From the NCBI GenBank assembly GCA_034522055.1, contig JAXHLS010000006.1, positions 1 to 64,000 of the forward strand: a stretch of 64,000 bases of DNA. The letters are read 5' to 3'. The stretch's first letter is position 1. The number at the start of each line of letters is the position of its first letter. The notes below the pieces were generated by a model that worked only from the letters and a program-made list of their open reading frames with translations, was not told where the DNA came from and made no database searches. Source of the stretch: Gammaproteobacteria bacterium. Lineage in GTDB: Bacteria; Pseudomonadota; Gammaproteobacteria; JAABTG01. The translations under genes and the position numbers were made by a program. This document shows positions 23,988 through 41,801 of this stretch, in pieces.

Positions 23988-25952
23988 TCATGGCAGGCCT
24001 GTCACCACTCGTCCACGTCGAACGCCTGGTCCGGCTCGTCGCGGACGTGCGCCGGCGTCGCCGCTGCCGCCCCGGGCAGCCGCTCGGGTGCCGCCGGCGG
24101 CACCCTTCCCGCCGCCCTGCGGCGGGCCCGCCCGGGCGCGCGAGCGGTCGAGTTCGTGCAGGTAGATGTCTAAGGCGTGAGGATGCTCCGTCAGGGTATC
24201 GACGCGCTGGCGCGATACCGCCTCGGCCTCCTCGGGTGTGGTAAAGACGTGGGGCGTAATCAGCAGGACCAGTTCCCGCTTGTTGTCGGTGCGCTCGGTG
24301 TCGCGGAACAGCGCCCCCATCACCGGCAGATCGCCGAGGAGGGGGACCTTCTTCACGACGTCGGAGGAGGAGCGGGTGATCATGCCGCCGATCATCACGG
24401 TCAGGCCGTCTTTCGCCATCGCGGTGCCCTCGATGGTCGAGGTGTCGATGGTGTCGATGGGCACATTCGTGACGATGCCGTTGCCCACCACCGGGATCTG
24501 GCCGCCGTTGGGGTTGACCGTGGAGGCCTCCTGCAGCAGGCGCATCAGCACGGTGCGATCGGCGTTGATGCTCGGCAGGATCGTCAGCGTGTTGCCGACC
24601 TCGACTACTTCGGTCACGGGTACGGGCGTGCCGACGAAGGTGTTGTTGCCACCACCGGTGCCGGTGAACTGTTGCGAGAATCCGGTGGTCAGCACCGTCT
24701 GCTCACCGATGAAGATCTTCGCCGGCCGGTTGTTGGAAGCGAGCAGCATCGGCGTGGCCAGGATGTTCACGCGGCCTTCGCTGTCGAGCAACTGCAGGCG
24801 CGCCCGCACGTGCTCGTTCATCACTTGGAACACCAGGCTGCTGGTGTCCTTGAGCCCCGCGCCCACCAGTCCCAGCAGGGCGTTGGGACCGGTTGCAGCC
24901 GATGGATTCAGGGCATTCGGGGCCTGACCGTCCCGCGGGCCGGTGCTGTCGCCGCCGCCCGTGTAGCTGAAGTCGAAGGAGGACCTGAAGGTATCGTCGC
25001 CGAGTTCGATGGACATCACCTTCATCTCCAGCAGCACCTGGGGCGTGGGGCGGTCGGACTCACGGACGATACGCTCGACCTCTTCCATCGCCTGCTCGTC
25101 GGCGGTGCGCACGAACAGCAGGTTGTGCTCGCGGTTGATGGAAACGAAGATCGGGACGTTGTTGCGGTTGCGCACGCTGGCCAGGGTCTCCTCGGAGACC
25201 ACCAGCGATTGGTCGTTGGGCCCGGCCTGGGCGCGTTCGAGCATGGCGATCTGCCCGGTCGTGAGTTCGCCGATGTCTTCCTTGGGGTCTGCGCCGCGTC
25301 GCGCCACCCGGCCAGTGTCGTTACCGACCCGCCGCGACGTGCGATCGAAACGCCGATTATCGCGACTCGTCCGTCTCGAGCCCCCGGTGCCGGAAACGCC
25401 GCCGGTGCTATCCAGTGTGGCGCCTGGCACCTCCAGATCATCGTCGAAGTCCGGCTGCAGGTCCGCCTCCACCCGGTCCGTGCCGAACATCGCCTCGATG
25501 GTGCGCGCAATCGTGACCACGTTCTGGTACCTCGTCGTGAAGACCCGTGTCCGTTCCTCCCGGAATACGATGATGTCCTTGAAGTACTCTTCGGTGGTCA
25601 TCACCGTGTAGATGTCGGTCTCGCTGTTGTGGCGGTACCAGATGCCGGCTACCCGCGCGATGCTGTCTATGGCATCAGCCACCTGAATGTTGCGCAGAAA
25701 GAGCGTGAAGGTGCGGCTGCCGGCTTCGCTCGTGGCAGTGATGTTTATGCCGGTCAGTTCGGAAATGACCCGGATCGCATCGCGAACCCGGGTGTCCTTG
25801 AACTCGAGTTCTTCGATATGCCCCAATCCGTTCCTGGCGGGGTCCGCCTTGGCGAGAAAGGTGCGGCGTTCGCCGGCATGGGAAGCATTGGGCAGTTGAA
25901 TCAACATGACACCGGCAAGGGCCAGGGCGATGAGGGGTATGGCTTTGTGCAT
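23988..25952 (-). CDS. secretin (GspD/PilQ/MshL-like)
   Basis: A 654-residue outer-membrane secretin. The Sec signal ends near residue 26. An N-terminal STN/N0-like domain (VRDAIRVISELTGINITAT) is followed by N1-like segments. The C-terminal pore domain contains VNILATPMLLASNNRPAKIF, LTVMIGGMITRSSSDVVKKVPLLGDLPVMG and NKRELVLLITPHVF, the classic secretin signature. A Gly/Arg-rich tail follows; another frame gives a more acidic end stopping at 24002, so the last 40 residues are uncertain. It would form the outer-membrane channel for the pilus/secretion machine encoded upstream. It is the last gene of the minus-strand cluster. Confidence 0.93.
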   Translation of the reverse strand: MHKAIPLIALALAGVMLIQLPNASHAGERRTFLAKADPARNGLGHIEELEFKDTRVRDAIRVISELTGINITATSEAGSRTFTLFLRNIQVADAIDSIARVAGIWYRHNSETDIYTVMTTEEYFKDIIVFREERTRVFTTRYQNVVTIARTIEAMFGTDRVEADLQPDFDDDLEVPGATLDSTGGVSGTGGSRRTSRDNRRFDRTSRRVGNDTGRVARRGADPKEDIGELTTGQIAMLERAQAGPNDQSLVVSEETLASVRNRNNVPIFVSINREHNLLFVRTADEQAMEEVERIVRESDRPTPQVLLEMKVMSIELGDDTFRSSFDFSYTGGGDSTGPRDGQAPNALNPSAATGPNALLGLVGAGLKDTSSLVFQVMNEHVRARLQLLDSEGRVNILATPMLLASNNRPAKIFIGEQTVLTTGFSQQFTGTGGGNNTFVGTPVPVTEVVEVGNTLTILPSINADRTVLMRLLQEASTVNPNGGQIPVVGNGIVTNVPIDTIDTSTIEGTAMAKDGLTVMIGGMITRSSSDVVKKVPLLGDLPVMGALFRDTERTDNKRELVLLITPHVFTTPEEAEAVSRQRVDTLTEHPHALDIYLHELDRSRARAGPPQGGGKGAAGGTRAAARGGSGDAGARPRRAGPGVRRGRVVTGLP

Positions 25953-25970
25953 GTCGGGAGTCCCCGTCTT

Positions 25971-26606: not shown

Positions 26607-26610
26607 CGGC

Positions 26611-27852
26611 TTACATCCCACCGGTCGATACCTTGAGAGCGGCCTGGAAAAAGGCCAGATAGACCACCGCGACCATGCCGCCGACGATCAGGATCAGGAG
26701 CGGTTCGACCCAGGCGGCCAAGGCCTTGACCCGCGCCTGGAGGTCCTTGCGGTAGAACTCGCCGAGGCTTTCCATGACGGCATCGAGTTCGCCGCTGCGC
26801 TCGCCGATGGCCGCCATGTGGCTGACCAGCTGCGGGATCGGCGGCCGCCGCAGGGCGGCCGACAGGGGCCGCCCGCTGAGGATCTCGTCACCGGCTTGGC
26901 CGAAGGCCTCGCCCAGCGCCCGGTTGCTCGTGACATCACGGGTGATGCGCAGGGAGGCGAGCAGCGAGATGCCGCTGCGCAGCTGCATGGCCATGGTCCA
27001 GGTCGCCTGGGCGAGGCCGGAGGCGAGAATGACCTTGCCGATGACGGGCGTGCGCACCAGTACGGCGTCCATCAGGCGCGCCCCGCGATGCGTCGTCGCG
27101 GCGATGAACACGGCGAGCAGGGCAAGCAATAGTGTGGCGCCCACGGTGCCCCCCCAGGTCTCGAACCAGGTGGCGAGATCGAGCAGGAACCGCGTGATCG
27201 GCGGCAGGTCGACGCCACGACTGCTGAGGAAGCCGGCAAAGCGCGGGATCACCCAGCCCACCAGCGCGATCGATACCCCCAGGGCCATGAAAAAGACGAT
27301 GGCGGGATAAGTCAGCGCCGTGGTGAGCTGGCGCTTGACGTCCTGGCGGCGCTCGAGGTCCTCGGCGAGGCGATCGAGGATGTTGTCGATCTCACCGCTG
27401 CGCTCGCCGGCCTCGAGCAGTTTGCTGACCTGGGGCGGAAACAGACCTTTCTGTGCCGCCATGGATCGTGACAGACTGGCGCCCCCTGGATGTCGTGCGC
27501 TCAGGGCGCCCAGGGCCTGGCGCAGCCGCAGCTTGGACGCCATCTCACGGTTGGCGTCCAGCGCCTGCACCACGGTATGCCCGGAACGCAACATCAACGC
27601 GAGCTGGTGGAACAGGAATACCAGATCCAGCGGGCGTACCGGCAGGTAGCGGCGTAGCGACAGCAATTCCAGCCATCCCCGCCAGCCGCGGCGTCGCCCC
27701 GAGCCGGCGCCACCCCCGCCCGCCGTGACCGAAACGACGTATACGGCCTGGTTGCGCAGCGCCGTCGCGGCTTCCCGTGGGCTGGCGGCCTCGAGCTCGC
27801 CGCTCTGCTCCTGGCCACGCTGGTCCAGGGCGACATAGGAGTAGAGTGCCAT
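26611..27852 (-). CDS. inner-membrane platform protein, PilC/GspF family
   Basis: A 413-residue platform protein of the T2SSF family, with two repeated domains. The first carries FLFHQLALMLRSGHTVVQAL, and the second repeats the pattern around TWTMAMQLRSGISLLASL. Membrane segments are visible at about 182-205, 235-257 and 385-405. The typical KLLEAGERSGEIDNILDRLA and AIGERSGELDAVMESLGEFY motifs are both present. The protein anchors the cytoplasmic ATPase to the inner membrane and supports pilin assembly. It begins 1 bp after the ATPase gene ends. Confidence 0.95.
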   Translation of the reverse strand: MALYSYVALDQRGQEQSGELEAASPREAATALRNQAVYVVSVTAGGGGAGSGRRRGWRGWLELLSLRRYLPVRPLDLVFLFHQLALMLRSGHTVVQALDANREMASKLRLRQALGALSARHPGGASLSRSMAAQKGLFPPQVSKLLEAGERSGEIDNILDRLAEDLERRQDVKRQLTTALTYPAIVFFMALGVSIALVGWVIPRFAGFLSSRGVDLPPITRFLLDLATWFETWGGTVGATLLLALLAVFIAATTHRGARLMDAVLVRTPVIGKVILASGLAQATWTMAMQLRSGISLLASLRITRDVTSNRALGEAFGQAGDEILSGRPLSAALRRPPIPQLVSHMAAIGERSGELDAVMESLGEFYRKDLQARVKALAAWVEPLLILIVGGMVAVVYLAFFQAALKVSTGGM

Positions 27853-27853
27853 C

Positions 27854-29484
27854 TCAGCCGCCCGCCGCGATGATCAGGTGTTGTACTTCGGCGCGGCTGG
27901 TCAGACCCGCGCCGATCTTCTCGCGGCCGTCCTGGAGCAAGGTGTGATAGCGCTCCCCGGCCGCGCGGCGCAGCTCGTCCTCGCGCGCCCCGGCGGCGAC
28001 CATCTCGCCCAGCGCGGGGTCGATCCACAGCGACTCGTAGAGGCCGACCCGGCCGAGGTAGCCGGTGCCCAGGCACAGGGGGCAGCCCTTCGGCCGGTAG
28101 GGGGCGACACCCAGGTCCGGCGCACCACGGACCGGCGGCGTATCCATCTCCGGCGGCACGGGCTCGCGGCAGTGCGGGCACAGCCTGCGCACCAGCCGTT
28201 GGGCCATCACACCGATCAGCGTCGAACCGATGAGGTAGGGCGGTACGCCGATGTCCGCGAGACGGGTGATGGCGCTGACCGCATCGTTGGTGTGCAGGGT
28301 CGACAGCACCAGATGGCCGGTCATTGCGGCCTTGAGGGCCGTTTCGGCCGTATCCAGATCGCGGATCTCACCCACCAGGATCACGTCGGGGTCGTGACGC
28401 AGGAACGAGCGCAAGGCCTGGGCGAAGCCGACCTTGGTGCTCACCTGGACCTGGGAGATCCCTTCGATCACCTGTTCGATGGGGTCCTCGACGGTCAGGA
28501 CGTTGAGTTCGTCGGTGTCGAGTTCGCGCAACGCGGCATACAGCGTCGTCGACTTGCCGCTGCCGGTGGGGCCGGTGACCAGGATGATCCCGTGGGGGCG
28601 GTCGAGTGCGGCCTGGAAGGGCGCGAGGATGAACTCCGGCATGCCCAGTTGGCTCAGGTTGAAGCCACCGGTGCCCTGGCCGAGCAGGCGCAGCGTGACG
28701 CGCTCACCCCAACGGGTCGGCACGGTGGCGATGCGGATGTCGTTCGGTGGCACCTCCCACTGCTGGATCTGGTAGGTCATGCCGCCGTCCTGGGGCAGGC
28801 GCTGTTCGGCGATGTCCAGGTTGGCCAGCACCTTGATGCGGGTGACCACGGCGTCGCCCTCGGCCTCGCCGAGGGGCCGTTTGAACTCCTGCATGTGGCC
28901 GTCGACCCGCAGGCGGATGCGGTAGCCGAGTTTCTCGGGCTCGAAGTGCACGTCGGTGGCGCGGCGCAGGTGGGCGTCCTTCATGATGTCGTCGAGCAGT
29001 CCGGTCGCATCGGCCTCGCCGACCACGTTTTCCACCTCGCTCCCGGGGGAGTGGGCGCGCGTCCAGCGCCGGACCGCGGCGCGCAGTGCCTCCGGCGCGG
29101 CCAGGCCGAGTTCGAACCGCAGACCGGTCGCGCGCTGCGCCATCTCGAGACTCGTCTGGTCGTCGGGGTCGTCGAGGGCGAGGCACAGGGAGCCGTCGGG
29201 CGCCGCACCGGCAACATCGCGCGCCGCAGCAGCACGTTCCTGGGCAGTTTCTCCATGGCGTCGGGGTCCGGGCGCAGGTCCTTCGGCAGCAGGAAGGTGA
29301 TGCCGCGCAGATCGGCCAGTGCCTGGTAGAGTGCGGCCTCGGGGAAGCGGCCGGCGCGCATCACCGCCTCGATCAGGCGAATACGTTCGCGGCGCGCCAG
29401 CAGTTTGAGCCCTGCGATGCTCTCGGCTTCAACCAGCCCGGCCTGCACGCCCGCATTGATCAGCGTCGCCTCGGTCACCGCCAT
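27854..29484 (-). CDS. assembly ATPase, PilB/GspE family (frameshift near 29200)
   Basis: A type II/IV secretion ATPase powering pilus or pseudopilus assembly. The N-terminal domain starts MAVTEATLINAGVQ and runs to MLPVR in one frame. The rest (MAQRATGLRFELG onward) lies in the next frame. One added base near 29200 restores about 543 residues and a continuous domain. The catalytic core is intact: Walker A GPTGSGKSTT, DPDVILVGEIRD, the His-box STLHTNDA and a tetracysteine zinc site (CPHC, CPLC). It overlaps the stop of the pilT-like gene. As written the gene is broken, but the intact remainder and the pattern of other indels here suggest a sequencing error. Confidence 0.92.
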
Positions 29485-30578
29485 CAGGTGTTCCTCCGGC
29501 CGTTGCGATTCAGCAGCCCCGCCATCGCGGTTGCATCGTGGCAGTGCGCCAGCGCCTCTTCGCTGCTCAGCAGGCGGTCGCGGACCAGGCTCGAGAGGGA
29601 CTGGTCGAAGGTCTGCATACCCTCGCCGCTGCCGGTCTCCATCACCGAGAAGATCTGCCGGGTCTTGCTGCTGGCGATGAGGTTGGCGACCGCCGGATTG
29701 ACCATCAGGATCTCGATGGCCGGCACCCGCCCGCGATCGTCGCCGACCGGTATCAGCTGCTGCGCAATCACCGCGCGCAGGGCCATGCCGATGCGGTGAC
29801 GGGCGACCTCCTGTTCGTCACCGGGGAAGCTGCCCACCAGGCGCTCTATACAGCCGATGGCCTCGCCGGTATGCAGCGTCGAGAACACCAGGTGCCCGGT
29901 TTCCGCCGCCGTCAGGGCGGCGCGCATGGTCTCGATGTCCCGCATCTCGCCCACCAGGATGACGTCCGGGTCTTCCCGCAGCGCGGCGCGCACGGCCTCG
30001 GCGAAGCTCGGCACGTCGGCGTACAGTTCGCGGTGGTGGACCAATGCCCGCTTGGGGGGATGGACGAACTCCACCGGGTCCTCGATGGTGAGGATATGGC
30101 AGGCGCGGCTGCGGTTGATCTGGTCGATCAGCGCGGCGAGCGTGGTCGATTTGCCGCTGCCGGTGGTGCCGGTCACCAGCACCAGGCCGGCGCGCAGGCT
30201 GGCCAGGGCGCCGAGCGCCGGCGGCAGGCGCAGTTCCTGCAGCGACAGCATGCGCTGGTCGAGGTGCCGTGCCGCGAGGGCGGGGCGACCGAGTTCGCAA
30301 TAGGCATTGATGCGAAAGCGTTCGCCATCCGGCGTGCCGTAACCGATGTCGACGGTGCGCCGCTCGGCGAACTCCTGCCATTGCGACGGGCTGCAGATAT
30401 GCTGCAGCATGCCGTGGATGCTGTCCGGCGCGAGTGCGACGTCGTCCAGGCGTCGCAGCTCGCCGTGGATCCGCAGGCAGGGCGGGGCGCCGCAACTCAG
30501 ATGCAGATCGGAGGCACCCTGTTCCACGAGTCGGCGCAGCAATTGGTCGAGGTGTTCGGCGGCTTGCATCGCGTTCAC
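29484..30578 (-). CDS. pilT: retraction ATPase, PilT family
   Basis: A 364-residue PilT-type hexameric ATPase. It opens with a PilT N-terminal domain (GASDLHLSCGAPPCLRIHGE) and has Walker A TGTTGSGKSTT, Asp-box ILTIEDPVEF, the PilT hallmark GEMRDIETMRAALTAAETGH and His-box STLHT. PilT proteins drive pilus retraction. Its presence argues for a dynamic type IV pilus-like machine rather than a plain type II secretion system, which normally lacks it. It is embedded between the PilO and PilB/GspE genes with 4-bp and 1-bp overlaps, so it is part of the same transcription unit. Confidence 0.93.
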   Translation of the reverse strand: MNAMQAAEHLDQLLRRLVEQGASDLHLSCGAPPCLRIHGELRRLDDVALAPDSIHGMLQHICSPSQWQEFAERRTVDIGYGTPDGERFRINAYCELGRPALAARHLDQRMLSLQELRLPPALGALASLRAGLVLVTGTTGSGKSTTLAALIDQINRSRACHILTIEDPVEFVHPPKRALVHHRELYADVPSFAEAVRAALREDPDVILVGEMRDIETMRAALTAAETGHLVFSTLHTGEAIGCIERLVGSFPGDEQEVARHRIGMALRAVIAQQLIPVGDDRGRVPAIEILMVNPAVANLIASSKTRQIFSVMETGSGEGMQTFDQSLSSLVRDRLLSSEEALAHCHDATAMAGLLNRNGRRNT

Positions 30579-31246
30579 AGGGTCAGGGTCAGGGTGACGT
30601 CCAGGGTGCTGCGCAGGGCGGGCGTGGTCTGCCCGTCCGTGTCGGCAGAGCCGGGCGGTGGGGTCTCCGCGGGCACGATCTGCAGCCCGATGGGCGCGCT
30701 GAGGCGGTCGAGGCGTTTCAGGCCCTCGAGGAAGTCCAGCAGTTCCCAGTAGCCGCCGTGGACCCGCAGAGTCACGATCGGCCGCTTCGAGAGGTGATCG
30801 CGCCGCTTTGCCGGCTGCTGGCCCGAACCGGCGGTGCTGTTGTCGGCGGCGCTGCCCTGGCTGTGGACGGTGAGGCCGGCACGCTGAGCCAGGGCCGAGA
30901 TGTCGAGCAGCAGGGCCTGCTCGCTGGCGTCGCCTGCGGCCGCGAAGCGCGCCTCCAGTGCCGCCAATTCGGCCTTCAGGGTCTCGCGGCTCTGCTCCAG
31001 TGACTTCAAGCGGGTCGTCAGGCCGGCGGTGTCGGTGTCCAATTCGGGTATCTCCGACGCCCTCAGCTCGATGCGGTTCTGCTTGCGCTTGACCATGTTC
31101 TCGGCATGCTCCATCTCCTTGAAGGTCTGGGGATACAGCAACATTCCGTAGAGTCCCGCCGGCAGCATGGTGAGGACGATGATCCAGGTGATGCGCTCGC
31201 GGAAGGACAGGGACCTCCAGCGCTGCATGAAGGCCGTGCCTGTCAT
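30575..31246 (-). CDS. PilO/GspM-like inner-membrane protein
   Basis: A 223-residue protein with one N-terminal membrane helix (about 18-38, ITWIIVLTMLPAGLYGMLLY). A coiled-coil stretch follows (ELRASEIPELD through AALEARF), then a small C-terminal ferredoxin-like domain (RPIVTLRVHGGYWELLDFLE), the layout of PilO. The start ATG overlaps the stop of the PilN-like gene (ATGA) and its end overlaps pilT by 4 bp. It would form the PilN-PilO alignment complex bridging the platform and PilP/secretin. Assigned from layout and order more than from sequence identity. Confidence 0.82.
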   Translation of the reverse strand: MTGTAFMQRWRSLSFRERITWIIVLTMLPAGLYGMLLYPQTFKEMEHAENMVKRKQNRIELRASEIPELDTDTAGLTTRLKSLEQSRETLKAELAALEARFAAAGDASEQALLLDISALAQRAGLTVHSQGSAADNSTAGSGQQPAKRRDHLSKRPIVTLRVHGGYWELLDFLEGLKRLDRLSAPIGLQIVPAETPPPGSADTDGQTTPALRSTLDVTLTLTL

Positions 31247-31950
31247 GTCTCGTCTCCCCCTTGCTGCCGTGCCTGTTGCAGCCACACCTCGATCTCGTAA
31301 CCGCGACCGTTGAAGCGGTTGGTGCCGGTGCTGATGCGGTGGTCCTGTACGCGCAAACCCCAGGGCTGGAGATGTCGCCCCAGATTGTTGATGAACAGCT
31401 GCCCGGCGGTATTGGTCAGGGCCCAGGCCGAGACGTAGTACAGGGTGTCGTCCTTGCGGTCATGGACAAAGCGGTCGAGCATCACCTCGTCGGTGACCGC
31501 ATCCCGCATCGCCTCGAGCATGCCGGGCGCCGATTGCCGGCGTTGCAGCAGCCGGTCGAGGGCGTGCTTGCGCCGCTGCAGGGTGTCGACCTCGGCGTCC
31601 AGGGTGTCGACCTCTGCGGCGATCCGCCTGCTCTCGGAGGTGACGGCCTGCGCGGTGTTGGCCAGGCGTACCCGCTCCTCGAACTCGGCGTCCAGCTCCA
31701 CCAGCCGTTGTGCGCTCAGGTGCGTCTGGATCCGCATCGACACCTCGAGCCCCGCCAGCCCGAGCACCACCACCACGGCGAAGGCATAAGGCAACAGGTC
31801 GGTGCGCCTCCACAGGGGCGGCGGTGGCGGCTGTGCCTGCAGCGGCGCCGCGCCCTGGGATTCGGCACGCCCCATGGCGTGCCGGCTGGCGGTCAGGATG
31901 CCGCCCCGGTGGTGCGGGGCGATGCCGCCCGTGACGGGTTGTTTCTTCAT
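31243..31950 (-). CDS. PilN/GspL-C-like inner-membrane protein
   Basis: A 235-residue bitopic protein. A cytoplasmic Pro-rich head (about 1-48) is followed by one membrane helix (about 54-71, YAFAVVVVLGLAGLEVSM) and a coiled coil of about 80-135 (VDTLDAEVDTLQRRKHALD). The C-terminal beta-rich domain includes DTLYYVSAWALTN. This is the PilN plan, except that the cytoplasmic head is longer than the usual short PilM-binding peptide. It overlaps the PilM gene upstream and the PilO gene downstream by 4 bp each. Confidence 0.8.
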   Translation of the reverse strand: MKKQPVTGGIAPHHRGGILTASRHAMGRAESQGAAPLQAQPPPPPLWRRTDLLPYAFAVVVVLGLAGLEVSMRIQTHLSAQRLVELDAEFEERVRLANTAQAVTSESRRIAAEVDTLDAEVDTLQRRKHALDRLLQRRQSAPGMLEAMRDAVTDEVMLDRFVHDRKDDTLYYVSAWALTNTAGQLFINNLGRHLQPWGLRVQDHRISTGTNRFNGRGYEIEVWLQQARQQGGDET

Positions 31951-33014: not shown

Positions 33015-33020
33015 CTGCGT

Positions 33021-34229
33021 TCAGTGGTCCAAAACGATCTCGACGTTGGGCAGGCTCGTCCCCGCGAAGAGCTGGACCCGCCTGGTGATGCGGCCGCTGT
33101 CGGGCGGGCATGGGCCGATGCTGGTGGCCGGGAATCCCGTCCCCGCCAAGGTGCAGCGGTAGGAGGCCTGAGTACCACCAGTCGTGTGTTTGGTGGTTGC
33201 ATCGTTGTCTACGATGAGAAGCAACGGGTGTTCGCCCTGCGGCACGTTCGTATCGAGGGTCGCGTAATCCGGTGCCGTACCCCCTTCATAGTGATTTTCG
33301 GTGAACACCGCCATAGCCGAGTCCCCGTCGGCAATGGGCGTTGCGAGGCACTCAGAGGTCAAGCGGCGCCAGCGACCATTGGTGCCGTCGGTGATCTGGT
33401 TGCGGTAGACCAATAAGGCGAGTCTCAGGCACTCGGTGCCTGCATACGCGATGGGTGTCCCCGTGCGGTTGGTCACAACGACCGGCCAGTCGCGCGTCAG
33501 TACGCGCCAGTCCGTGCTGTCGATGACGATTTTAAGATCGTCGTCATAGGGCGGCTCCGTGCTGTCCGGTGCCCCGTCGCGGCCGAGACTGGCGATTTCC
33601 AGGTCGATGCCTGCGGGGCCGCCTCCCGGGTTCGTCACTTGCCATCCATGATCGGGCGCCGCGCCGGTATTGCCCCAGCCGTCGCTAAAGGTGAGTGCTA
33701 CACCCGTTACACCCGGTGACAGGGGAAGGTAGGGACCGCGCCAACCCTTTTGCAACGTCTCTCCGGGTTCATCGAGTGGGCCTTCGCCGGTGCCATCGTT
33801 GTAACCGGCGGCATCAGGGACCGGGTCAAAGATCGGTTCCAAAGCGCGGTAGCGGTCCATGCATGCAGCCGTTGCCAAGCCATCGCCGCATTCGTCGTAG
33901 GTATCGGTGTTGTCGATCCGGGTGGCTTCCGCGATCAATGTCTCGACTGATTGCCCCGGGGGAGCCGCGTCATTGGGAATAAGGCCATTGTCTGCCGCAT
34001 AACCAGAGAGAAGTCGTTGGCCGTTGAACACAGGGTCCGAGTGCCCCACGATGCCCCTGAGCAATGCAGTAAGGCGTGTCCTGGTGTCCTCGTAGCGCAC
34101 CTGGCCGGTGTTGTCGGTCACCTGCGACAGGGTCATGAAGGCCACCGCCGAGAGAATGGTCACCACCAGCAGCAGTTCCAGCAGGGTCATGCCGGCGCAA
34201 CGGTGCGGCAGGCTCGGGGGCGTGTTCAT
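33021..34229 (-). CDS. large prepilin-like protein, 402 residues
   Basis: Class III-type leader ending Cys-Ala-Gly, then a mature start MTLLELLLVVTILSAVAF with the conserved Glu at position 5, the hallmark for cleavage by a PilD-type peptidase. The mature part is unusually long (nearly 390 residues), Asp/Gly/Thr-rich and has several cysteines (ECGDGLATAAC, TECLRLAL, TSECLAT). It could be a minor pilin or a tip adhesin; no adhesin domain is recognised. It overlaps the upstream hypothetical gene by 4 bp. Met replaces the usual Phe at +1. Confidence 0.87.
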   Translation of the reverse strand: MNTPPSLPHRCAGMTLLELLLVVTILSAVAFMTLSQVTDNTGQVRYEDTRTRLTALLRGIVGHSDPVFNGQRLLSGYAADNGLIPNDAAPPGQSVETLIAEATRIDNTDTYDECGDGLATAACMDRYRALEPIFDPVPDAAGYNDGTGEGPLDEPGETLQKGWRGPYLPLSPGVTGVALTFSDGWGNTGAAPDHGWQVTNPGGGPAGIDLEIASLGRDGAPDSTEPPYDDDLKIVIDSTDWRVLTRDWPVVVTNRTGTPIAYAGTECLRLALLVYRNQITDGTNGRWRRLTSECLATPIADGDSAMAVFTENHYEGGTAPDYATLDTNVPQGEHPLLLIVDNDATTKHTTGGTQASYRCTLAGTGFPATSIGPCPPDSGRITRRVQLFAGTSLPNVEIVLDH

Positions 34230-34834
34230 CGGGTGGTCCCGCCGGGGGTGGTCCCGCCGGATTGGTCCGCGCCCGGGGGGCGAGGGCCAACGTCGGTGGA
34301 GTACCCGGTCACGAGGATCGCCGGTCCCTTGGAGTAGTTGTACATGTGGTAGCCGTGGAAGGCGACGCGCCGGCCTTCCTCCCCCAGCCCGTCCCTGATC
34401 GCCGCGGCCGTCCGCTCCTCGACGTAGACGGGCATGATGTGGCCGCCGGGGGTGGTCACGAACATGCGGTGGTTGACCTCGGGCCTGGGATCCATCGGGA
34501 AGAATGCCAGCACCCGATACAGGTACTCGGCCTTGCGCGGGTGCGGATGTTGCTTGACCCTGGCGACGAAGCGGATGGGTGCCGGCGGCAGCAGGGAGGT
34601 GGTGCCTTCTTTGATCGGACGCTCCGCGGCCACGAAGCGGTCGATGTCGACGTGCTTAAAGGCAGCGGCATCGGGCGTGGGCTCGGCAGTGGCATCGGGC
34701 ACGACAGCGGCTTGGGGTGTCGGCCTGGAGGTCGCGGCGTCGTAGGCGAGCACGGCCCCGGCGACGAAGACCACCGTGAGGCTGGCGAAGAAGACGCCGC
34801 GGGTCACGCGGCCAGCGAATAGGGGTGTGAACAT
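34226..34834 (-). CDS. hypothetical membrane-anchored protein of the pilus cluster
   Basis: 202 residues with one N-terminal hydrophobic helix (GVFFASLTVVFVAGAVLAY, about 13-31), then an Ala/Pro/Thr-rich linker. A periplasmic domain follows with PIRFVARVKQHPHPRKAEYL and MFVTTPGGHIMPVYVEERTA. The C terminus repeats Gly-Gly-Thr-Thr from a small DNA repeat. No family is recognised. It lies 4 bp after the disrupted prepilin gene and overlaps the next prepilin gene by 4 bp, so it is almost certainly co-translated with them and part of the apparatus. Confidence 0.7.
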   Translation of the reverse strand: MFTPLFAGRVTRGVFFASLTVVFVAGAVLAYDAATSRPTPQAAVVPDATAEPTPDAAAFKHVDIDRFVAAERPIKEGTTSLLPPAPIRFVARVKQHPHPRKAEYLYRVLAFFPMDPRPEVNHRMFVTTPGGHIMPVYVEERTAAAIRDGLGEEGRRVAFHGYHMYNYSKGPAILVTGYSTDVGPRPPGADQSGGTTPGGTTR

Positions 34835-35648
34835 CGCATTACTCCAGGTTCAGGATCACGTCGTCGCCGCCGCCGCCGGGCTCGTACGTCCCGTTGCGTC
34901 CCATGCTGACGATCGACGGGCTGTCGTCGAGACCGAACACCAGACCGAACACCAGGAAGGGTCGGCCCCAGTACTCGCGTTCGCTGCCCCCCGGGTCCGC
35001 ACGCCAATCCAGCAGGGTGTTGCCACCCACGTTGACGGCCCGTCCTTCGAAGGGATCGGCGAGCCCCGGAACATCGGGGATGTTGTCACCGGCCAGAGGG
35101 TCGCCCGAGGGGTCGCCGGCCGCGGTACCATCGTTGATGTCATCACGGATATCGACGAACCCATCCTCGAAACCCCTCAGGTAAGGTCCGCGCCAGCCGC
35201 GACCGCTGTTCGCATCCCAGGTCTCCAGCCGGTGTTCGGTCCCATAGAGCGGATTGACCCAGAGCTGCTCCAGGTTGGCTGGCGAGTAGAACCAGCGTTG
35301 CCTTTCGGCGTTGTTGGTGCCCGCGTAGGATGGGAGACTGTCGATTGGCACGGCGCCCGGGGGCGTGGCCGTATCCAGATCGAACGGCCCCTGCTTCGGG
35401 TAGTAACCGGTGTCCTGGCGAAACTGGTCCATCGCCTTGGCGAGTTCCATCATCTCGGCACGCACCAGCTTGGCCTGGGCGTCCTCGTTGACGCCGGTCA
35501 TGGTGCCGGTGGCGACGAAGGCCACCGTGGCCAGGATGGCCACCACCGCCAGCAGTTCCAGCAGGCTGTAGCCGCGCCGGGCGTGCGGCGCGCCGGGGCA
35601 CGGGGGGTGAGTCCTCCCGGTGGATGGAGCGAAGGTGTTTATGTGTTG

Positions 35649-37057
35649 GCCTCGTCAGAAAAATTCGTGGGCGGTTTCCGGGACAGGTAATGCTCCAAGC
35701 GCATGATATAAAGCGATTTCTGCCGCATGATAAGTCCTGAAGCCATATGCTTTTCTGGTGGTCAGTTTCGCTTTGTTATTGAAACCTTCGACAATGCCGC
35801 TCGAAAACTGCTTTTTTGCCCGGAACCAGTTCAGCAGCAGGGGCCGATGGTTTCTCAGCATGCGGGCCACCTTCTTCATCGGCTCAATCTTGGAACGCAT
35901 CGTTTTCGTACACCACTTATCCAGGAACTCACCGGCCCAATAGGGCGACTGATACGACCAGAAGAGCTGAAACTCCTCTTTGAGCAGATAGCTTCTGACC
36001 GACTTCAAATTGTACTGCAGCAGATCCGCCAGTTTGGTCTCCTGTTTCTCCGTCAGATTCTCCGGACGCTTGAGCAGCAGCCAGCGGGTCTTCGTCAGTA
36101 CCGGATCGTAGCCTCTTTTCTTCAGCTCCTTGGCCTCCCCGGCCCGCACCTCATCGATCGCTTTACTCAAGTGCGCCATGATGTGGAACCGGTCCAGGAT
36201 GTGGAGTGCACCTCCCGCCTTCTTGGCGATCACCCTCAGGTAGGGCTTCCACATATCGCTGCAGATATAGCGCAAATCGGCGGTTCGTTCCTTGCCAAGC
36301 CACCGGAAGAATCCCAACAAAGTTTTGACCTTCCGTTTCTTGCCGATCCACAGCAACCGTTTACAGCCAACGTCGATCTGGTAAACCAGCGTGAGGTACT
36401 TGTGGCCCCTCTGCCATTGGATCTCATCGATACCAATAGCTTTAATGCCCGACAGGTCTCTATGTTCCCGGCCCCAGGTGACAGCCATCTCGACCGAGCA
36501 GAACACATGGTCCCAACTGGTGCGAAAGGCTTCAGCGACTTCCTTCCAGCTCAGGCGTTTGGCCCAGCTCGCCAGAAACCAGGCATAGGCCTCGGTCAGG
36601 CGATGTTTGCCTTCGGCCCAAGGCATCCGCTCCACCACGATGCCACAGCTTGGACAGTCGACGCGGCGTGGCGCATAGAGAAAAAACACCTTAATACCCC
36701 ACACCGGAATAAACTCAAATCTTCGAACCGGCAATGTGTCGTAACCCGGCCTGCGCCGGCCGCACCTCGAGCACTCCGGCCGCCCATTACCGCGAGGGTG
36801 GAGTTCGGCCTCGATTGTCGGCACCTCCGTGCCATCTACCCAACGGATGGCGCCGTACACAAAAGATTTGAATTTCTGGACTCGATTAAGGATAGTCTTG
36901 ACTTGCATCCTCGCTCCTTTTTTCTGATTGACGGTTGGTCGTACTTCCATCATCTCAGAGTTAGGGAGCAGGATGCGCTTCCCCTAATAAAATCTAAATT
37001 TGCATCCCTGGAGTGCTAGTTATCTACGTTTTTACCCACAAATTTTCCTGAAGAGCC
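35649..37057 (-). mobile_element. ISL3-family insertion sequence, copy 2
   Basis: A 1409-bp copy of the element at 4044-5452, in opposite orientation. The ends are GCCTCGTCAG on the left and CTGAAGAGCC on the right. It is flanked by the 8-bp direct repeat ATGTGTTG (35641-35648 and 37058-37065). It interrupts a prepilin leader. Equal length and the apparently identical transposase show that the two copies separated recently. Confidence 0.95.
35655..36908 (-). CDS. ISL3-family transposase, copy 2
   Basis: A 417-residue DDE transposase whose translation looks identical to the one at 4193-5446. The zinc-ribbon cysteines, IGIDEIQW, CSDMWKPY and the distal GIVEGFNNKAK segment are all intact. The start at 36908 follows the same GGAGCGAGG site. 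It reads in the same direction as the pilus genes, so transcription from the element could run into them. Its TGA stop is only 9 bp from the disrupted prepilin body and in frame with it. Confidence 0.95.
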   Translation of the reverse strand: MQVKTILNRVQKFKSFVYGAIRWVDGTEVPTIEAELHPRGNGRPECSRCGRRRPGYDTLPVRRFEFIPVWGIKVFFLYAPRRVDCPSCGIVVERMPWAEGKHRLTEAYAWFLASWAKRLSWKEVAEAFRTSWDHVFCSVEMAVTWGREHRDLSGIKAIGIDEIQWQRGHKYLTLVYQIDVGCKRLLWIGKKRKVKTLLGFFRWLGKERTADLRYICSDMWKPYLRVIAKKAGGALHILDRFHIMAHLSKAIDEVRAGEAKELKKRGYDPVLTKTRWLLLKRPENLTEKQETKLADLLQYNLKSVRSYLLKEEFQLFWSYQSPYWAGEFLDKWCTKTMRSKIEPMKKVARMLRNHRPLLLNWFRAKKQFSSGIVEGFNNKAKLTTRKAYGFRTYHAAEIALYHALGALPVPETAHEFF

Positions 37058-37068
37058 ATGTGTTGCAT

Positions 37069-37366: not shown

Positions 37367-37368
37367 GG

Positions 37369-37394: not shown

Positions 37395-37470
37395 GTTGGG
37401 AATGGAAAAGCTCACGCTTCGGCCACGTCCCTGTGGCCGGCCCCGCGACGGGGCCTACGCCGTCAGTCCC

Positions 37471-38502
37471 TTAGATGGTGTTGCGGGTGCCGTCCCACTC
37501 ACCCAGTTCCTCTTCCTTGGTGTCACCGGCGCCGTCGATGATGGTCACCAGGGCCACCTGATCCGCCGCCTCGATTCCGCCACCATTGAAGTTGCCGACA
37601 TCGTAGATGGCGATGAAACGGTTGTACTCGGTCGCCGAGACATGGCGATAGACCGGCACCGAGGTCATGCCGCCGAGGTCGTTGGCATTGAACAGGGTCG
37701 ATGCCGGGCCGAGACCCACGGCCAGGTAGGCCTTGCCGGTGGCAGCGGCCAGGTTGGTACCGTCAAACTCCACCGCGCCCGTCGGCTGGCCTACCAGACG
37801 CTCCTGGCCACCGGTCCAGAACATGGCGAGGGGTGCATCGTTACCGTCCAGGGTGTACGCAAAACCACAACCGTTGCCCAAAGGCGTCAAAAAGATGTTG
37901 CCGGCCACGACGGCGTTACCCCGCGAAGCGATGGTGTCTGCCAGGTTGGCGTCCGTGCACGCATCGCCGGAAGCAGTGACGAAGCCGTGAATGGCATCAT
38001 TACCCTGATCCGCACCGATGTACTGCAACTGGGTAATGCCGATGTCCTGCAGGATACCCGTGGTCGCCGGTGTGGCAGTAGAGTCGCCCGCCAAGTCGGT
38101 GTTGAGGGCCACCGGTGACACATCCTCGATCGCGAGTATGCTCGCCGGTACAGCGGCCGCTACACCGGCAGCGTCCGATGTTGCGGCCACCAGCAGTGAG
38201 TCATAGTTGTTTGGCAGCGTGTTTCTGTTCAACACCCGGTAGGTCCGGATACCCTTGTTCAGCTCGTCCATCATCGCCACATGGGCCGCCGCCGAGGCGC
38301 GGGCGTCGGTGTCCTGCAGGGCGATGGTGGCGGTGCCGGCGATGGCGGCCAGGATGGCGACCACCACCAGCAGTTCGAGCAGCGTGAAACCACCCTGTTT
38401 GCGCGCTCTCTGCAGCCTGCCGACGCGGCCGGCGAGTTGGCTGTCGGGGATCGACGCGGGGTCGATGCGATCGAAGTGCTTTAAAACGGTTTTCATGTTC
38501 AT
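37471..38502 (-). CDS. large prepilin, probable major subunit
   Basis: 343 residues. A long leader of about 38 residues ends in KQGG, then a mature start FTLLELLVVVAILAAIAGTA with Phe+1 and Glu+5, the classic prepilin peptidase site. The mature region is rich in Ala/Thr/Gly/Asp, with a pair of cysteines (GDACTDANL, GNGCGFAY) that may form a disulfide. The ATG at 38502 follows AGAGGAACCACGA. Separate from the rest of the cluster (own terminator at 37369) and directly upstream of it in transcription order, as expected for an abundant pilin. The mature size of about 305 residues is large for a major pilin. Confidence 0.88.
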   Translation of the reverse strand: MNMKTVLKHFDRIDPASIPDSQLAGRVGRLQRARKQGGFTLLELLVVVAILAAIAGTATIALQDTDARASAAAHVAMMDELNKGIRTYRVLNRNTLPNNYDSLLVAATSDAAGVAAAVPASILAIEDVSPVALNTDLAGDSTATPATTGILQDIGITQLQYIGADQGNDAIHGFVTASGDACTDANLADTIASRGNAVVAGNIFLTPLGNGCGFAYTLDGNDAPLAMFWTGGQERLVGQPTGAVEFDGTNLAAATGKAYLAVGLGPASTLFNANDLGGMTSVPVYRHVSATEYNRFIAIYDVGNFNGGGIEAADQVALVTIIDGAGDTKEEELGEWDGTRNTI

Positions 38503-38754: not shown

Positions 38755-38967
38755 TCAGCCCGACTGTTCGGCAACCCCATTGCCGGGTTCGAAGTCCACC
38801 ACGTAGCGGTACTGCTTGCCGCAGTGGATGATCACCTCCTTCTGGCCGCGGCGCAGGATACGCATCTCCACGCGCAGGTCGGCGTAGCCATCATGGGCGA
38901 ACATCTCGTGGTACAGCCACTGCAACCGTTCGAGGATCTCGCTGTTAGTGGCGGTGGCCTTGGACAT
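38755..38967 (-). CDS. small hypothetical protein, paralogue of 19614
   Basis: About 70 residues (78 if the upstream ATG at 38991 is used). It carries HDGYADLRVEMRILRRGQKE and CGKQYRYVVDF, which align with the small protein at 19614-20017. The shared pattern is an amphipathic helix, then H-(D/E)-G-Y-(A/G)-D, then beta strands ending G-K-(Q/E)-Y-R. No family is recognised. The Met at 38967 follows GGAAGA at short spacing, while the upstream Met has a weaker site. It lies between the GspG-like gene and the large pilin gene, in the same orientation. Confidence 0.6.
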   Translation of the reverse strand: MSKATATNSEILERLQWLYHEMFAHDGYADLRVEMRILRRGQKEVIIHCGKQYRYVVDFEPGNGVAEQSG

Positions 38968-38991
38968 CACATCTTCCATCCATTGTTCCAA

Positions 38992-39215
38992 ATCTTTGCG
39001 AGCCGTGGGGGATGCTTTTTTCCTAAACGTGGGCGTATTCTAAACAAAAAAATCGTAACGCAAATGATTTACATTAAGTTTACTAAAACCAGGCCGCTAT
39101 AGTGCGCCGGTCGATGAGGTGGCGGTCAGTTCCCGCTGCGTAACTGCGCCGGATTGGCCGGCGCATCGACCAACCGGCGCTCGTACAGACCCCGTTGCGT
39201 GGGCTCGGGCCGGGT
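38992..39215. promoter_or_regulatory. AT-rich gap, probable promoter region
   Basis: About 220 bp with an unusually AT-rich core (39035-39100) in a GC-rich context, which suits a promoter for the small ORF and possibly the pilin gene on the minus strand. No exact promoter boxes are claimed. Confidence 0.4.
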
Positions 39216-39635
39216 TCAAGGCATGGGCCGGCGAAAGAGGTCCCACTCCACCACGTCATCCCCGCCGATCCGGCCATCGGGGCCCAGGGAGTAGAGATCG
39301 TAGCCGCGGCCGCTCCGGGTGCCCGGCAATTCGTAACGATACTGCCGGCCCCAGGGGTCTTCGGGCAGGGTTTCGAAATAGCCTTCCTCGACCAGGGACA
39401 TCAGGCTACCCGGCATGGGCCGCCCCAGGTCCAGGGCATAGGCCCCCAGGGCGCTCTTGAGCAGCAGGATGCCTTCCCGGGCTTGGCGCAAGTCCCTTTG
39501 TCCCGGGGTCTCCACCGCCATCAGGAACCGGGCCGACACCGCCGCCAGGACCAGCAGCAGGACCAGGATCACCGCCCATTCGACGAAGCCGAAGCGGGTA
39601 CGGCCCGGGGTCTTGTTCCTTGTCTGTCCTGACAT
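39216..39635 (-). CDS. GspG-like pseudopilin with atypical start
   Basis: 139 residues. One N-terminal hydrophobic helix (FVEWAVILVLLLVLAAVSARF) is preceded by RFG. The C-terminal half is a strong match to type II secretion major pseudopilins (GYFETLPEDPWGRQYRYELPG, YDLYSLGPDG, then GDDVVEWD). In a normal pseudopilin Glu is at +5 after Gly; here the only candidate is Glu at +3 after Gly-Phe, so processing may be altered. It starts 1 bp after the multiheme cytochrome gene, so the two are co-transcribed. This is the key link between the cytochromes and the pilus-like machine. Confidence 0.83.
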   Translation of the reverse strand: MSGQTRNKTPGRTRFGFVEWAVILVLLLVLAAVSARFLMAVETPGQRDLRQAREGILLLKSALGAYALDLGRPMPGSLMSLVEEGYFETLPEDPWGRQYRYELPGTRSGRGYDLYSLGPDGRIGGDDVVEWDLFRRPMP

Positions 39636-39636
39636 C

Positions 39637-41247
39637 TCAGCGCCCTCCAGCCAAGGCCATGGACTCGGAGCCCGCTTCCACTTCCATGGTGGTTTCAGCC
39701 ATGAGCACCGGGGGGATCACCACCTGCCCGACGTCGAAGTTCAAGGCCGGGATCTGGTACTCCTCGATGTTCTGGAGGATGTCCTGCAGGGCCAGGCGAT
39801 ACCACAGTCTGGCCTTTACGCGCAGGGGCCCCTGGACCCCGGCGGGCAGCGGGATCCGGTAGCCCACCCGGTCGCTCTCGGCGGGACGAATCGGGGGGCG
39901 GGCGTATGCCATGCGGTCCACGTCGAAGAGGACATGGCGCGTATTGGCACTGCCATCGCCATTGGTCATGCGCTTGATGTAGAGAACGGCATCGGGGTCG
40001 ATCTCCCCGGTCTTGCCATCGAACCAGCCGTTGTCATAGAGGACACGCCCCTGGGCATCCTCGAGGCTGAGCTGAAGCCACATGTGGCGTTGGTCCAGGG
40101 GGCCGGTCGGTAGGTTGTGTCCGGCGCCGCTGTTGGTCACCACCAGGTCCAGCTCCAGCGCGGCGCCTGATGCCCGCCTGGTCTCGATGGCGAGGTCCGC
40201 CGCTTCCTCGAGGAGCCCGAGAATCAGTTCATGCTGGCGTTGCAGATCGGCCAGCCATTCCTCGCCGCTCAGGAAGACGTTCCTGCCGGGTACCCAGCCG
40301 CCGCGCAGTTCCACCACCTTGCGGCCAAGCAGATCCGCGGCGGTCAAGAGGTAGTTGTTGCCGACGAAACGGTGGGAAACGGGGCGCTCGGGTTTCTCGC
40401 CGCGCTTGAGCGCCGCGATGTAAGCGGCCGGATCCGGGTGCATGTGGCAGTCCTGGCACTCGATGCCCTGGGCCGCGTACGGACTCAGGCGCCATTCGTC
40501 GAAGGTCTCCTGCATGTGCAGGGGGAAGTCGCCGTGGACCGGGCTGGGGCGGATCTCGGTGTGGCAGGCCCCGCACATCTCCGACCGGCCCATCAGGGGG
40601 TTGTGGGTCTTGGCCTGCATGGCCTTGGCGTGCTCCTGGGGTGCCGCCATGACGAGGGCAGGATCCAGGTAGCGGTGGATCTCGTTGATGGCCAGGGTCA
40701 AGGCGCCATTGCCGGCCAGGGGCTCTGTCGCCCGCACCACATGACAGGCGATGCAGGTCGCCCCCTCCTCGAGGGCCGGGTTCGGCCCCACCACCGGCAG
40801 GGGGGTGGTCGCCCCGGCCATTACCGCCAGGGGCTCGTGACAACTCTCGCACCAACGCGCCTTTTCCGTGGCCAGTTCGCCGCCCTCCCTGCTGCCGAAT
40901 TCGTTGACCGCGACCGAGGTCTCATAGATGACGTCTAAACCGCTCACCGCATGGATGGACGATGCCCATTCCTTGAATTCCTTGAGATGGCATTCCGCAC
41001 AGAACGTGGCAGACGGCAGGCCGCGCCAGTCCACCAGCCGGTTGCCCTCGGTTTTTAATTCGGCCGGATAGAAGGGATTGTCCTGGATCCAGGGCATGGA
41101 GTAGTGGGGCAGGTCCGTACCCGGTTCGAGGCCCGTGTTCTTCTGCCAGGGCAACAGGGCGCTGAGGGCCGCGAAGGCCGCGAGGGAAACGGCACACACC
41201 TGGAGAATCCGCAGCAGGGGGCGCGTCAGGGTGATATTGACGTTCAT
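39637..41247 (-). CDS. pentaheme c-type cytochrome
   Basis: 536 residues. One N-terminal membrane helix (about 12-33). Five CxxCH heme motifs: CAECH (83-87), CESCH (133-137), CIACH (165-169), CGACH (225-229) and CQDCH (264-268). Many extra His residues may act as distal ligands. The C-terminal half lacks hemes and is beta-rich. This fits a cytochrome c-554/NapC-related multiheme electron carrier anchored at the membrane and facing the periplasm. The ATG overlaps the stop of the cytochrome b-like gene by 4 bp. The frame extends upstream, but the ATG at 41247 gives a proper anchor. The redox partner is unknown. Confidence 0.88.
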   Translation of the reverse strand: MNVNITLTRPLLRILQVCAVSLAAFAALSALLPWQKNTGLEPGTDLPHYSMPWIQDNPFYPAELKTEGNRLVDWRGLPSATFCAECHLKEFKEWASSIHAVSGLDVIYETSVAVNEFGSREGGELATEKARWCESCHEPLAVMAGATTPLPVVGPNPALEEGATCIACHVVRATEPLAGNGALTLAINEIHRYLDPALVMAAPQEHAKAMQAKTHNPLMGRSEMCGACHTEIRPSPVHGDFPLHMQETFDEWRLSPYAAQGIECQDCHMHPDPAAYIAALKRGEKPERPVSHRFVGNNYLLTAADLLGRKVVELRGGWVPGRNVFLSGEEWLADLQRQHELILGLLEEAADLAIETRRASGAALELDLVVTNSGAGHNLPTGPLDQRHMWLQLSLEDAQGRVLYDNGWFDGKTGEIDPDAVLYIKRMTNGDGSANTRHVLFDVDRMAYARPPIRPAESDRVGYRIPLPAGVQGPLRVKARLWYRLALQDILQNIEEYQIPALNFDVGQVVIPPVLMAETTMEVEAGSESMALAGGR

Positions 41248-41801
41248 CGGGCATCTTCCCCCTTGCCGGCAATCCACAGCAGATGGGTGAAAAGCAACGG
41301 TAACAGCAAGACGCTGCTCCAGAGATGCAGCCAGACCAGGGATTGGACCAGGTAATAGCCCTGCATCCAGACCAACCCCAGGTAGAAAAGAAGCCCGGGC
41401 ACGGCGATCAACAGGCCGCTGCCGAATACCAGTAGCAGGCACCAGGTCAGCAGATGTCCGAGACAACGCTGCCGGTACCTTTGAGCGCTCTCATCGGCTT
41501 GCGGGCGCAGGCGCCACGGGGTCAGCAGCAGGGACAAGGGCTGATCCTTGTGGCGCTGGTGCAGCACGTAGAAGGCGGGCAGCAGGATGGTGGCCATGAG
41601 GCCGGCGGCCAGGTGTAGCAGCAGTACCGTCTGCGAGGCGTTCCAATTGAGGTCCCTGGGTATCAGCCCGTACCAGAAGCCGCTGGTCAGGGCGACACCG
41701 AAGGCGATGGCGAAGCCGCCGAAGAGGGAGATCAGATTGTGGACGCCGAGGCGCTCGTGGTCCATCTCGGTCTGGGCGACGGTCAACTTGAAGTATTTCA
41801 T
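41244..41801 (-). CDS. cytochrome b-like membrane protein
   Basis: 185 residues with about four membrane helices (ISLFGGFAIAFGVALTSGFW, VLLLHLAAGLMATILLPAFY, LLTWCLLLVFGSGLLIAVPG, LVWLHLWSSVLLLPLLFTH). His residues lie within helices at positions suited to bind b-type heme (LLHLAAG and LHQRH; LHLW and FTHLLW). It probably receives electrons from or gives electrons to the pentaheme cytochrome encoded next, as a quinol-linked membrane module. The start at 41801 is chosen for its position before the first soluble segment; upstream frame is repeat-derived. Confidence 0.75.
   Translation of the reverse strand: MKYFKLTVAQTEMDHERLGVHNLISLFGGFAIAFGVALTSGFWYGLIPRDLNWNASQTVLLLHLAAGLMATILLPAFYVLHQRHKDQPLSLLLTPWRLRPQADESAQRYRQRCLGHLLTWCLLLVFGSGLLIAVPGLLFYLGLVWMQGYYLVQSLVWLHLWSSVLLLPLLFTHLLWIAGKGEDAR

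What the first reader, a model, noticed from the sequence alone, without database searches (positions are those of the whole stretch)
24002..41801. Pilus-like secretion machine linked to a cytochrome b-cytochrome c-pseudopilin operon
The minus strand encodes, in order, cytochrome b-like, pentaheme cytochrome c, GspG-like pseudopilin, a small protein, a large pilin, two more large prepilins, PilM, PilN, PilO, PilT, PilB, PilC, PilP and a secretin. The pseudopilin starts 1 bp after the pentaheme gene, so the two are almost surely co-transcribed. The machine mixes type IV pilus parts (PilT, PilM-N-O-P) with a type II secretion-type pseudopilin and unusually large pilins. A link to extracellular electron transfer or to cytochrome export is possible but unproven.
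Basis: partly seen in the sequence, partly recalled or inferred. Interest (0 to 1): 0.75.

Follow-up and report, generated by a model that had tools for sequence, protein, structure and literature searches.

The report
Iron-linked pilus locus beside unrelated cytochromes
The pilus-building genes are real and belong to a rare, uncharacterised kind of type IV pilus, but the cytochrome genes beside them are unrelated neighbours; a tiny marker gene found in every copy of this pilus locus otherwise occurs only in haem- and iron-uptake gene clusters, which suggests that the pilus serves iron acquisition rather than electron export.

Summary
The pilus locus (38979-23988, minus strand) is small gene, prepilin1, prepilin2, a hypothetical, prepilin3, PilM-N-O-T-B-C-P, secretin. 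The same core recurs in 20 other gammaproteobacterial genomes, about 1% of those sampled. None has a multihaem cytochrome, the cytochrome b or this GspG beside it. Its ATPase forms its own clade, apart from T4aP, T2SS and MSHA, and fails their curated cut-offs. Cytochrome b and the pentahaem protein instead match Anaerolineae (12 loci, 49-53% identity), where all ten loci with enough sequence lie behind an FTR1 iron permease and an EfeO-like protein, with no pilus. The GspG-like protein lacks a usable prepilin-peptidase site. New lead: the 74-aa small protein precedes prepilin1 in 20 of 20 relatives. Its only other occurrences are haem-receptor loci and, as a paralogue, this window's imelysin iron operon. 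A Fur-box-like site lies in its promoter. Favoured reading: an iron/haem-regulated type IV filament, probably impaired in this genome. Its function is inferred, not shown.

The parts
38755..38979 (-). small protein (74 aa), marker gene of the pilus locus; also found in haem/iron uptake loci
   Evidence: tblastn in 20/20 related pilus loci directly upstream of prepilin1; other occurrences; no Pfam or NCBIfam family
39060..39078 (.). Fur-box-like site (13/19) in the AT-rich promoter region of the small gene and pilus locus
   Evidence: consensus scan; candidate only
37471..38502 (-). prepilin1 (343 aa), long leader (about 40 aa), GFTLLELLVVV
   Evidence: N_methyl Pfam, TIGR02532; long leader conserved in orthologues
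35646..37057 (-). ISL3-family IS (transposase 35655-36953) inserted in the 5' end of prepilin2
   Evidence: PF01610 E 1e-73; second copy at 4044-5455; short flanking direct repeat
34839..35645 (-). prepilin2, body downstream of the IS (GYSLLELLAVV, GspG-like); its ATG lies at about 37069 beyond the IS
   Evidence: weak T2SSG match
34226..34834 (-). hypothetical 202 aa, orthologue only in G056
33021..34229 (-). prepilin3 (402 aa)
   Evidence: N_methyl; orthologues
31947..33014 (-). PilM-like (fused to PilN in relatives)
31243..31950 (-). PilN-like
30575..31285 (-). PilO-like
   Evidence: weak PF04350; order conserved
29484..30578 (-). PilT, locus-specific clade
   Evidence: TIGR01420 412 bits, cut-off 319; tree 97/96
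27854..29484 (-). PilB assembly ATPase, split by a frameshift near 29195
   Evidence: PF00437; frames compared; own clade 98/99
26611..27852 (-). PilC/GspF platform protein
   Evidence: PF00482
25971..26621 (-). PilP-like
   Evidence: weak PF04351; orthologues
23988..25952 (-). secretin, end of the conserved pilus locus
   Evidence: PF00263; NCBIfam cut-offs of GspD, PilQ, MshL not met
41244..41801 (-). cytochrome b-like membrane protein, conserved His; neighbour, not part of the pilus
   Evidence: 33-44% to Anaerolineae orthologues
39637..41247 (-). pentahaem cytochrome c; neighbour, not part of the pilus
   Evidence: 49-53% to 12 Anaerolineae proteins
39216..39635 (-). GspG-like membrane-anchored protein without Gly-1; neighbour
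   Evidence: PF08334 5e-14
42159..43370 (-). HemS/ChuX haem utilisation gene, Fur-box-like site upstream (43350)
   Evidence: PF05171
22319..23842 (-). di-haem DUF1111 peroxidase of the imelysin iron operon (3' frameshift)
   Evidence: PF06537
20014..22192 (-). imelysin (21149-22192) and DUF1513 (20014-21159)
   Evidence: PF09375, PF07433
19820..20017 (-). second small-protein paralogue, start overlaps the DUF1513 stop (ATGA)
   Evidence: profile hit E 2.6e-12

Best explanation
The pilus genes form a complete, stand-alone locus of a rare, unassigned class of type IV filament. It begins with the small gene (38979) and was not built together with the cytochromes. Most likely it is an iron/haem-regulated filament. 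Under iron shortage Fur is predicted to release the promoter upstream of the small gene. The small protein, which takes the place that HemP/HmuP holds in haem uptake operons, is predicted to tune expression in response to haem or iron. PilB, PilC, PilM-P and the secretin then assemble a filament of large GspG-like pilins; copies with PilT can retract it. The filament would bring haem, haemoproteins, iron-bearing particles or iron-rich surfaces to the cell, where TonB, HemS and imelysin-type systems take the iron in. The cytochrome b-pentahaem-GspG operon is a separate acquisition, related to a redox module that accompanies an FTR1 iron permease in Anaerolineae. Shown: locus content and conservation, separateness from the cytochromes, the small protein's contexts, the IS. 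Inferred: Fur control, haem sensing, the role of the filament. In this genome the IS in prepilin2, and possibly the PilB frameshift, probably impair the machine.
For: Same gene order in 20 relatives. PilB clade 98/99 apart from T4aP, T2SS and MSHA, with curated cut-offs unmet. No cytochrome operon near any of the 20, and no pilus gene near 12 cytochrome relatives. FTR1-EfeO-cytochrome b-pentahaem in all ten Anaerolineae loci with enough upstream sequence. Small protein in 7 of 369 class genomes, including all 4 with the pilus (hypergeometric 4.6e-8), and in 2 of 348 phylum genomes, the same 2 as the pilus. Its non-pilus occurrences: a haem-receptor locus in G251 (receptor over cut-off), loci in G074 (beside a haem-type receptor) and G203 (short contig, same PEP-CTERM neighbours), a complete haem operon on the Aquabacterium olei plasmid, and the imelysin operon in this window. 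Fur-box-like sites at the small, HemS and FecI promoters: 5 sites of at least 13/19 in 64 kb against 0.83 expected, 2 in 140 kb of host control; 15/19 before the A. olei small gene, 14/19 before that of G056.
Against: No expression or binding data. In the AT-rich relatives of G163's order the Fur-box scan is no better than shuffles, so Fur control is not shown to be a general property of the locus. The small protein has no known biochemistry and is not a recognised HemP member. The pilins have no haem motif and no informative structure. Two of the five Fur-like sites (11167, 11278) are not clearly at iron gene starts. The locus is linked to a two-component system in 18 relatives and to an O-antigen-ligase-type protein in 9, which would equally suit an ordinary adhesive pilus. 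Small-protein proximity may reflect shared regulation only.
Confidence: 0.5

Rival explanations
1. Ordinary adhesion or surface-attachment pilus of an unassigned type IV filament clade; the small protein is a general small regulator that happens to be shared with haem operons, and iron only sets when the cell attaches.
For: Two-component system linked in 18 of 20 relatives and O-antigen-ligase-type protein in 9, large prepilins, PilT in only 5 of 21 loci, an outer-membrane Pom-type protein after the secretin in many.
Against: Does not explain why the small protein is in all 20 pilus loci and otherwise only in iron/haem loci.
Confidence: 0.33
2. One reading: the machine exports or presents the pentahaem cytochrome, or forms a filament for extracellular electron transfer, with the GspG-like protein as the link.
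For: Adjacency and shared strand in this genome; GspG co-transcribed with the pentahaem gene (1-bp gap); a weak N-terminal match of prepilin1 to a Geopilin chain, which is the generic pilin N-terminus.
Against: No cytochrome operon in 20 related pilus loci; cytochrome relatives lie in Chloroflexota with FTR1 and no pilus; the pentahaem protein has an N-terminal hydrophobic anchor and pairs with a membrane cytochrome b; GspG lacks Gly-1; a promoter-like gap lies between them.
Confidence: 0.05
3. A type II-like secretion system for an unknown substrate rather than a surface pilus.
For: GspG-like prepilin2 and prepilin3; PilB, PilC and secretin score nearest to GspE, GspF and GspD; a subtilase gene follows the locus in G056.
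Against: PilM-N-O-P and PilT are pilus components; no GspC, GspK or GspL recognised; no conserved secreted cargo across the loci.
Confidence: 0.12

Closest known systems
Unassigned ('generic') systems of the type IV filament superfamily (Denise et al. 2019, PMC6668835)
   Same: ATPase, platform, prepilins, secretin and PilM-N-O-P in one locus; the paper leaves 884 systems unassigned
   Different: No member of this clade could be matched by name; the signature small protein and long-leader prepilin1 are not described in the passages read
MSHA pilus
   Same: single-locus layout with PilM/N-like parts, ATPase, platform, secretin and several prepilins
   Different: MshL cut-off not met; ATPase in another clade than the host's own MshE; PilT inside the locus in 5 of 21 copies
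FTR1/EfeUO-type iron uptake with a redox partner (PMC3143127)
   Same: Anaerolineae relatives of the cytochrome pair stand behind FTR1 and an EfeO/imelysin-like gene
   Different: The window host has no FTR1; cytochrome b plus pentahaem stands where an EfeB peroxidase is usual
HemP/HmuP/ChuP small haem-uptake regulators (PMC9131926)
   Same: small protein heading a receptor-HemS-HmuTUV operon in A. olei and lying between receptor and HemS in G251
   Different: no match to the Pfam HemP model among members scanned
Type IV pilins tied to iron acquisition (Synechocystis PilA1, PMC4144903; Legionella PilA2, PMC13170364)
   Same: precedent for pilins aiding growth on poor iron sources
   Different: those are ordinary T4P pilins; here a whole dedicated locus carries an iron-linked marker gene

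Membership tests
Type IV filament superfamily | assembly ATPase, platform protein, prepilins with class III signal, secretin | tested here: met
Type IVa pilus (T4aP) | PilB and PilQ above curated cut-offs and clading with T4aP PilB | tested here: not met
   PilB 421 of 676 bits (window copy is split; intact G163 orthologue 461), PilQ 134 of 284; separate clade
Type II secretion system | GspE, GspF, GspD above curated cut-offs, clade with GspE | tested here: not met
   458 of 630, 276 of 424, 177 of 351 bits; intact G163 orthologue 470 of 630
MSHA pilus | MshL above cut-off and ATPase with MshE | tested here: not met
   131 of 250 bits; host MshE outside the clade
Retractile pilus | PilT-family ATPase | tested here: met
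   412 bits against a cut-off of 319; motion itself not testable
Prepilin/pseudopilin (GspG-like protein of the cytochrome operon) | Gly at -1 and Glu at +5 of the prepilin-peptidase site | tested here: not met
   R|FGFVE; Gly-1 replaced by Arg
Cytochrome-exporting or electron-transfer filament | conserved linkage of multihaem cytochrome genes and the filament locus | tested here: not met
   0 of 20 and 0 of 12
FTR1-associated cytochrome b-pentahaem module | FTR1 and EfeO genes in the same operon | tested here: not met
   protein orthologues yes, but the host has no FTR1
HemP/HmuP (small protein) | match to the Pfam HemP model | tested here: not met
   no hit up to E 10 among members; weak matches can be filtered
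HemP/HmuP (small protein) | haem binding and activation of receptor genes | not testable with these tools
   needs protein and mutants
Fur-regulated iron operon | Fur box in promoter | tested here: inconclusive
   13/19 in the window, 14/19 in G056, 15/19 in A. olei; not above chance in AT-rich relatives

The most novel reading that the evidence does not exclude
This is a dedicated haem/iron-acquisition type IV filament: a whole separate clade of the superfamily whose assembly locus is headed by a haem-operon small protein and whose fibre, retractile where PilT is present, brings haem or iron-bearing material to the cell surface.
Probability: 0.3. Interest if true: 0.8.

Novelty: new variant of a known kind. 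Interest (0 to 1): 0.57.

Why it matters
It corrects an attractive electron-transfer story: adjacency in one genome is explained by separate origins. It defines a recognisable, uncharacterised clade of type IV filaments with a simple signature (74-aa small protein plus long-leader prepilin1). The signature's restriction to this pilus and to haem/iron uptake loci makes a testable claim, that some type IV filaments serve iron acquisition, for which only scattered pilin mutants exist so far (PMC4144903, PMC13170364). It also points to an iron-uptake context for a cytochrome b-pentahaem pair that could be mistaken for an electron-transfer module.

Tried and rejected
Electron transfer/cytochrome export: rejected on linkage. 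GspG as a pilus subunit: weakened by the lost Gly-1. 'Small protein is HemP': no Pfam match, so only 'stands in its place'; searches for a HemP sequence in the fetched haem loci for a direct profile comparison found none. Exact Fur pattern GATAATNATTATC: no hit; the 19-mer scan gave the candidates. AlphaFold models of the pentahaem protein (pLDDT 48) and GspG (58) were too poor to use; no fold search was made. PDB sequence search with prepilin1 found only the generic pilin N-terminus, with the small protein nothing. Promoter/terminator consensus scan was no better than shuffles. Locus decay as the cause of the frameshifts: undecided, since a housekeeping pilQ of the same assembly also looks split, so assembly indels are as likely. 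The pentahaem tree did not resolve the exact branching, with distant gamma homologues falling on both sides; closeness to Anaerolineae rests on identity and gene order.

Full report
1. What is there. Three points were missed. A 1.41-kb ISL3-family insertion sequence (35646-37057, a second copy at 4044-5455 with 99.9% identity) sits in the 5' end of prepilin2; read across the flanks, the gene starts at about 37069 and is cut after about 11 bases. PilB is split by a frameshift near 29195. The GspG-like protein has lost the Gly-1 that prepilin peptidase needs; that requirement is established knowledge of the family. The DUF1111 gene downstream also has a 3' frameshift. The housekeeping pilQ of the same assembly looks split too, so the frameshifts may be assembly errors; the IS, with a second copy and flanking direct repeats, is unlikely to be one.

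2. The pilus locus is a unit of its own. A search with the PilM-like protein found it in 4 of 369 gammaproteobacterial genomes, the window's own included, but not in the same-genus or same-family genomes, and the profile found 2 of 398 in a phylum sample. In the order of G163 it is in 21 of 63 genomes. Twenty related loci were read: G056, G123, G163, G762 and sixteen of G163's order. All keep prepilin1, prepilin2, prepilin3, PilM-PilN (fused in relatives, split here), PilO, PilB, PilC, PilP, secretin; PilT is present in the window, G056, G123 and two others. Prepilin1 has a conserved long leader of about 40 residues. A two-component system is linked in 18 of the 20, and an O-antigen-ligase-type protein in 9. 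The host has separate T4aP, T2SS-type and MSHA-type ATPases. In a tree the locus's PilB forms one clade (98/99) apart from all of these, and the curated cut-offs for GspE, PilB, GspF, GspD, PilQ and MshL are not reached, only PilT's. It therefore belongs among the unassigned systems of the type IV filament superfamily (PMC6668835).

3. The cytochromes have another origin. The closest pentahaem proteins found by the pattern scan are twelve from Chloroflexota (Anaerolineae), 49-53% identical, each next to an orthologue of the cytochrome b-like protein with conserved histidines. In all ten loci with enough upstream sequence these follow an FTR1 iron permease and an EfeO/imelysin-like gene. There is no GspG and no pilus gene there. 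In 369 gammaproteobacterial genomes the next best matches are only 27-32% identical and have other neighbours. The window host has no FTR1.

4. The small gene changes the picture. It has no Pfam or NCBIfam family but stands directly before prepilin1 in all twenty relatives (46-71% identity), so it belongs to the pilus locus. In the 369-genome sample it is in seven genomes, including all four with the pilus (chance 4.6e-8 if independent; shared ancestry is not corrected for). In the 348-genome phylum sample it is in two, the same two that carry the pilus. The other occurrences are in haem or iron loci: in G251 between a TonB haem receptor (over the curated cut-off) and HemS-HmuTUV; in G074 on a contig with a haem-type receptor (below cut-off) and PEP-CTERM proteins, and in G203 on a short contig with the same PEP-CTERM neighbours; on the Aquabacterium olei plasmid at the head of a complete haem uptake operon; and as a weaker paralogue overlapping the end of DUF1513 in this window's imelysin operon. 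In haem operons this is the place of HemP/HmuP/ChuP, small haem-binding regulators (PMC9131926). The window itself is rich in iron genes: FecI/FecR-like genes (by eye) and a TonB receptor (11.8-15.9 kb), PepSY, imelysin-DUF1513-DUF1111, HemS.

5. Regulation. Sites with at least 13 of 19 matches to the Fur consensus number five in the window against 0.83 expected and two in 140 kb of host control sequence. Three lie before FecI, HemS and the small gene; the last overlaps the likely promoter of the pilus locus. G056 (14/19) and A. olei (15/19) have such sites before the small gene as well. In the AT-rich relatives nothing exceeds chance. This is suggestive only.

6. Mechanism and status. Shown: gene content, conservation, separateness, contexts of the small protein, IS insertion. 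Inferred: Fur control, haem response by the small protein, and use of the filament in iron or haem capture. Precedents for pilins in iron acquisition exist (PMC4144903, PMC13170364). The main rival is an adhesive pilus merely regulated by iron. In the window's own genome the machine is probably impaired, because prepilin2 is interrupted.

Noticed in passing
window 4044-5455 and 35646-37057: Two 99.9% identical copies of an ISL3-family element, a sign of recent transposition in this region.
   Followed up: yes
window 2360-3673 and 7756-8835: Two ORFs with the same N-terminus (MQRVESVSQEAKPDSSNPVEWPWVD...), probably a repeated mobile-element gene.
   Followed up: no
window about 41985-42006; L091 12915-12936; L093 484-505 and 1644-1665: A dispersed repeat (TGAAAGAGGAGCGCGTATCGCC plus flanks) lies just upstream of the cytochrome b gene and at several other host sites.
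   Followed up: partly
window 57753-58787 and G000:C2:138-1172 (L090): The same ORF start ([18 protein letters not shown]...) appears in the window and at the very end of another contig; possible assembly overlap or repeat.
   Followed up: no
L066-L081, L017, L085: A UhpB-like sensor kinase and GacA/NarL-like regulator are linked to the pilus locus in 18 of 20 relatives, after the secretin or divergent from prepilin1.
   Followed up: partly
L020 10171-11241, L068, L072-L076, L079-L081: A 356-378 aa outer-membrane protein (PF17251 in G123) follows the secretin in many related loci; it is absent in the window.
   Followed up: partly
A1 columns 140-210 (PilM-like): The PilM-like protein carries a repeat (RFGE-A---G-I--EQL-E-L-LQ) that by eye resembles MshEN nucleotide-binding motifs; not tested.
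   Followed up: no
L104 12447-14225, L105 1531-4060, L108 15310-16005: Related exported proteins (WGGWxRGxxGTLYAxW motif, some PEP-CTERM) accompany the small protein and haem-type TonB receptors; possible haem-binding surface proteins.
   Followed up: partly
L022-L033: Anaerolineae carry an FTR1-EfeO-cytochrome b-pentahaem gene cluster, apparently an iron uptake system with a cytochrome module in place of EfeB.
   Followed up: partly
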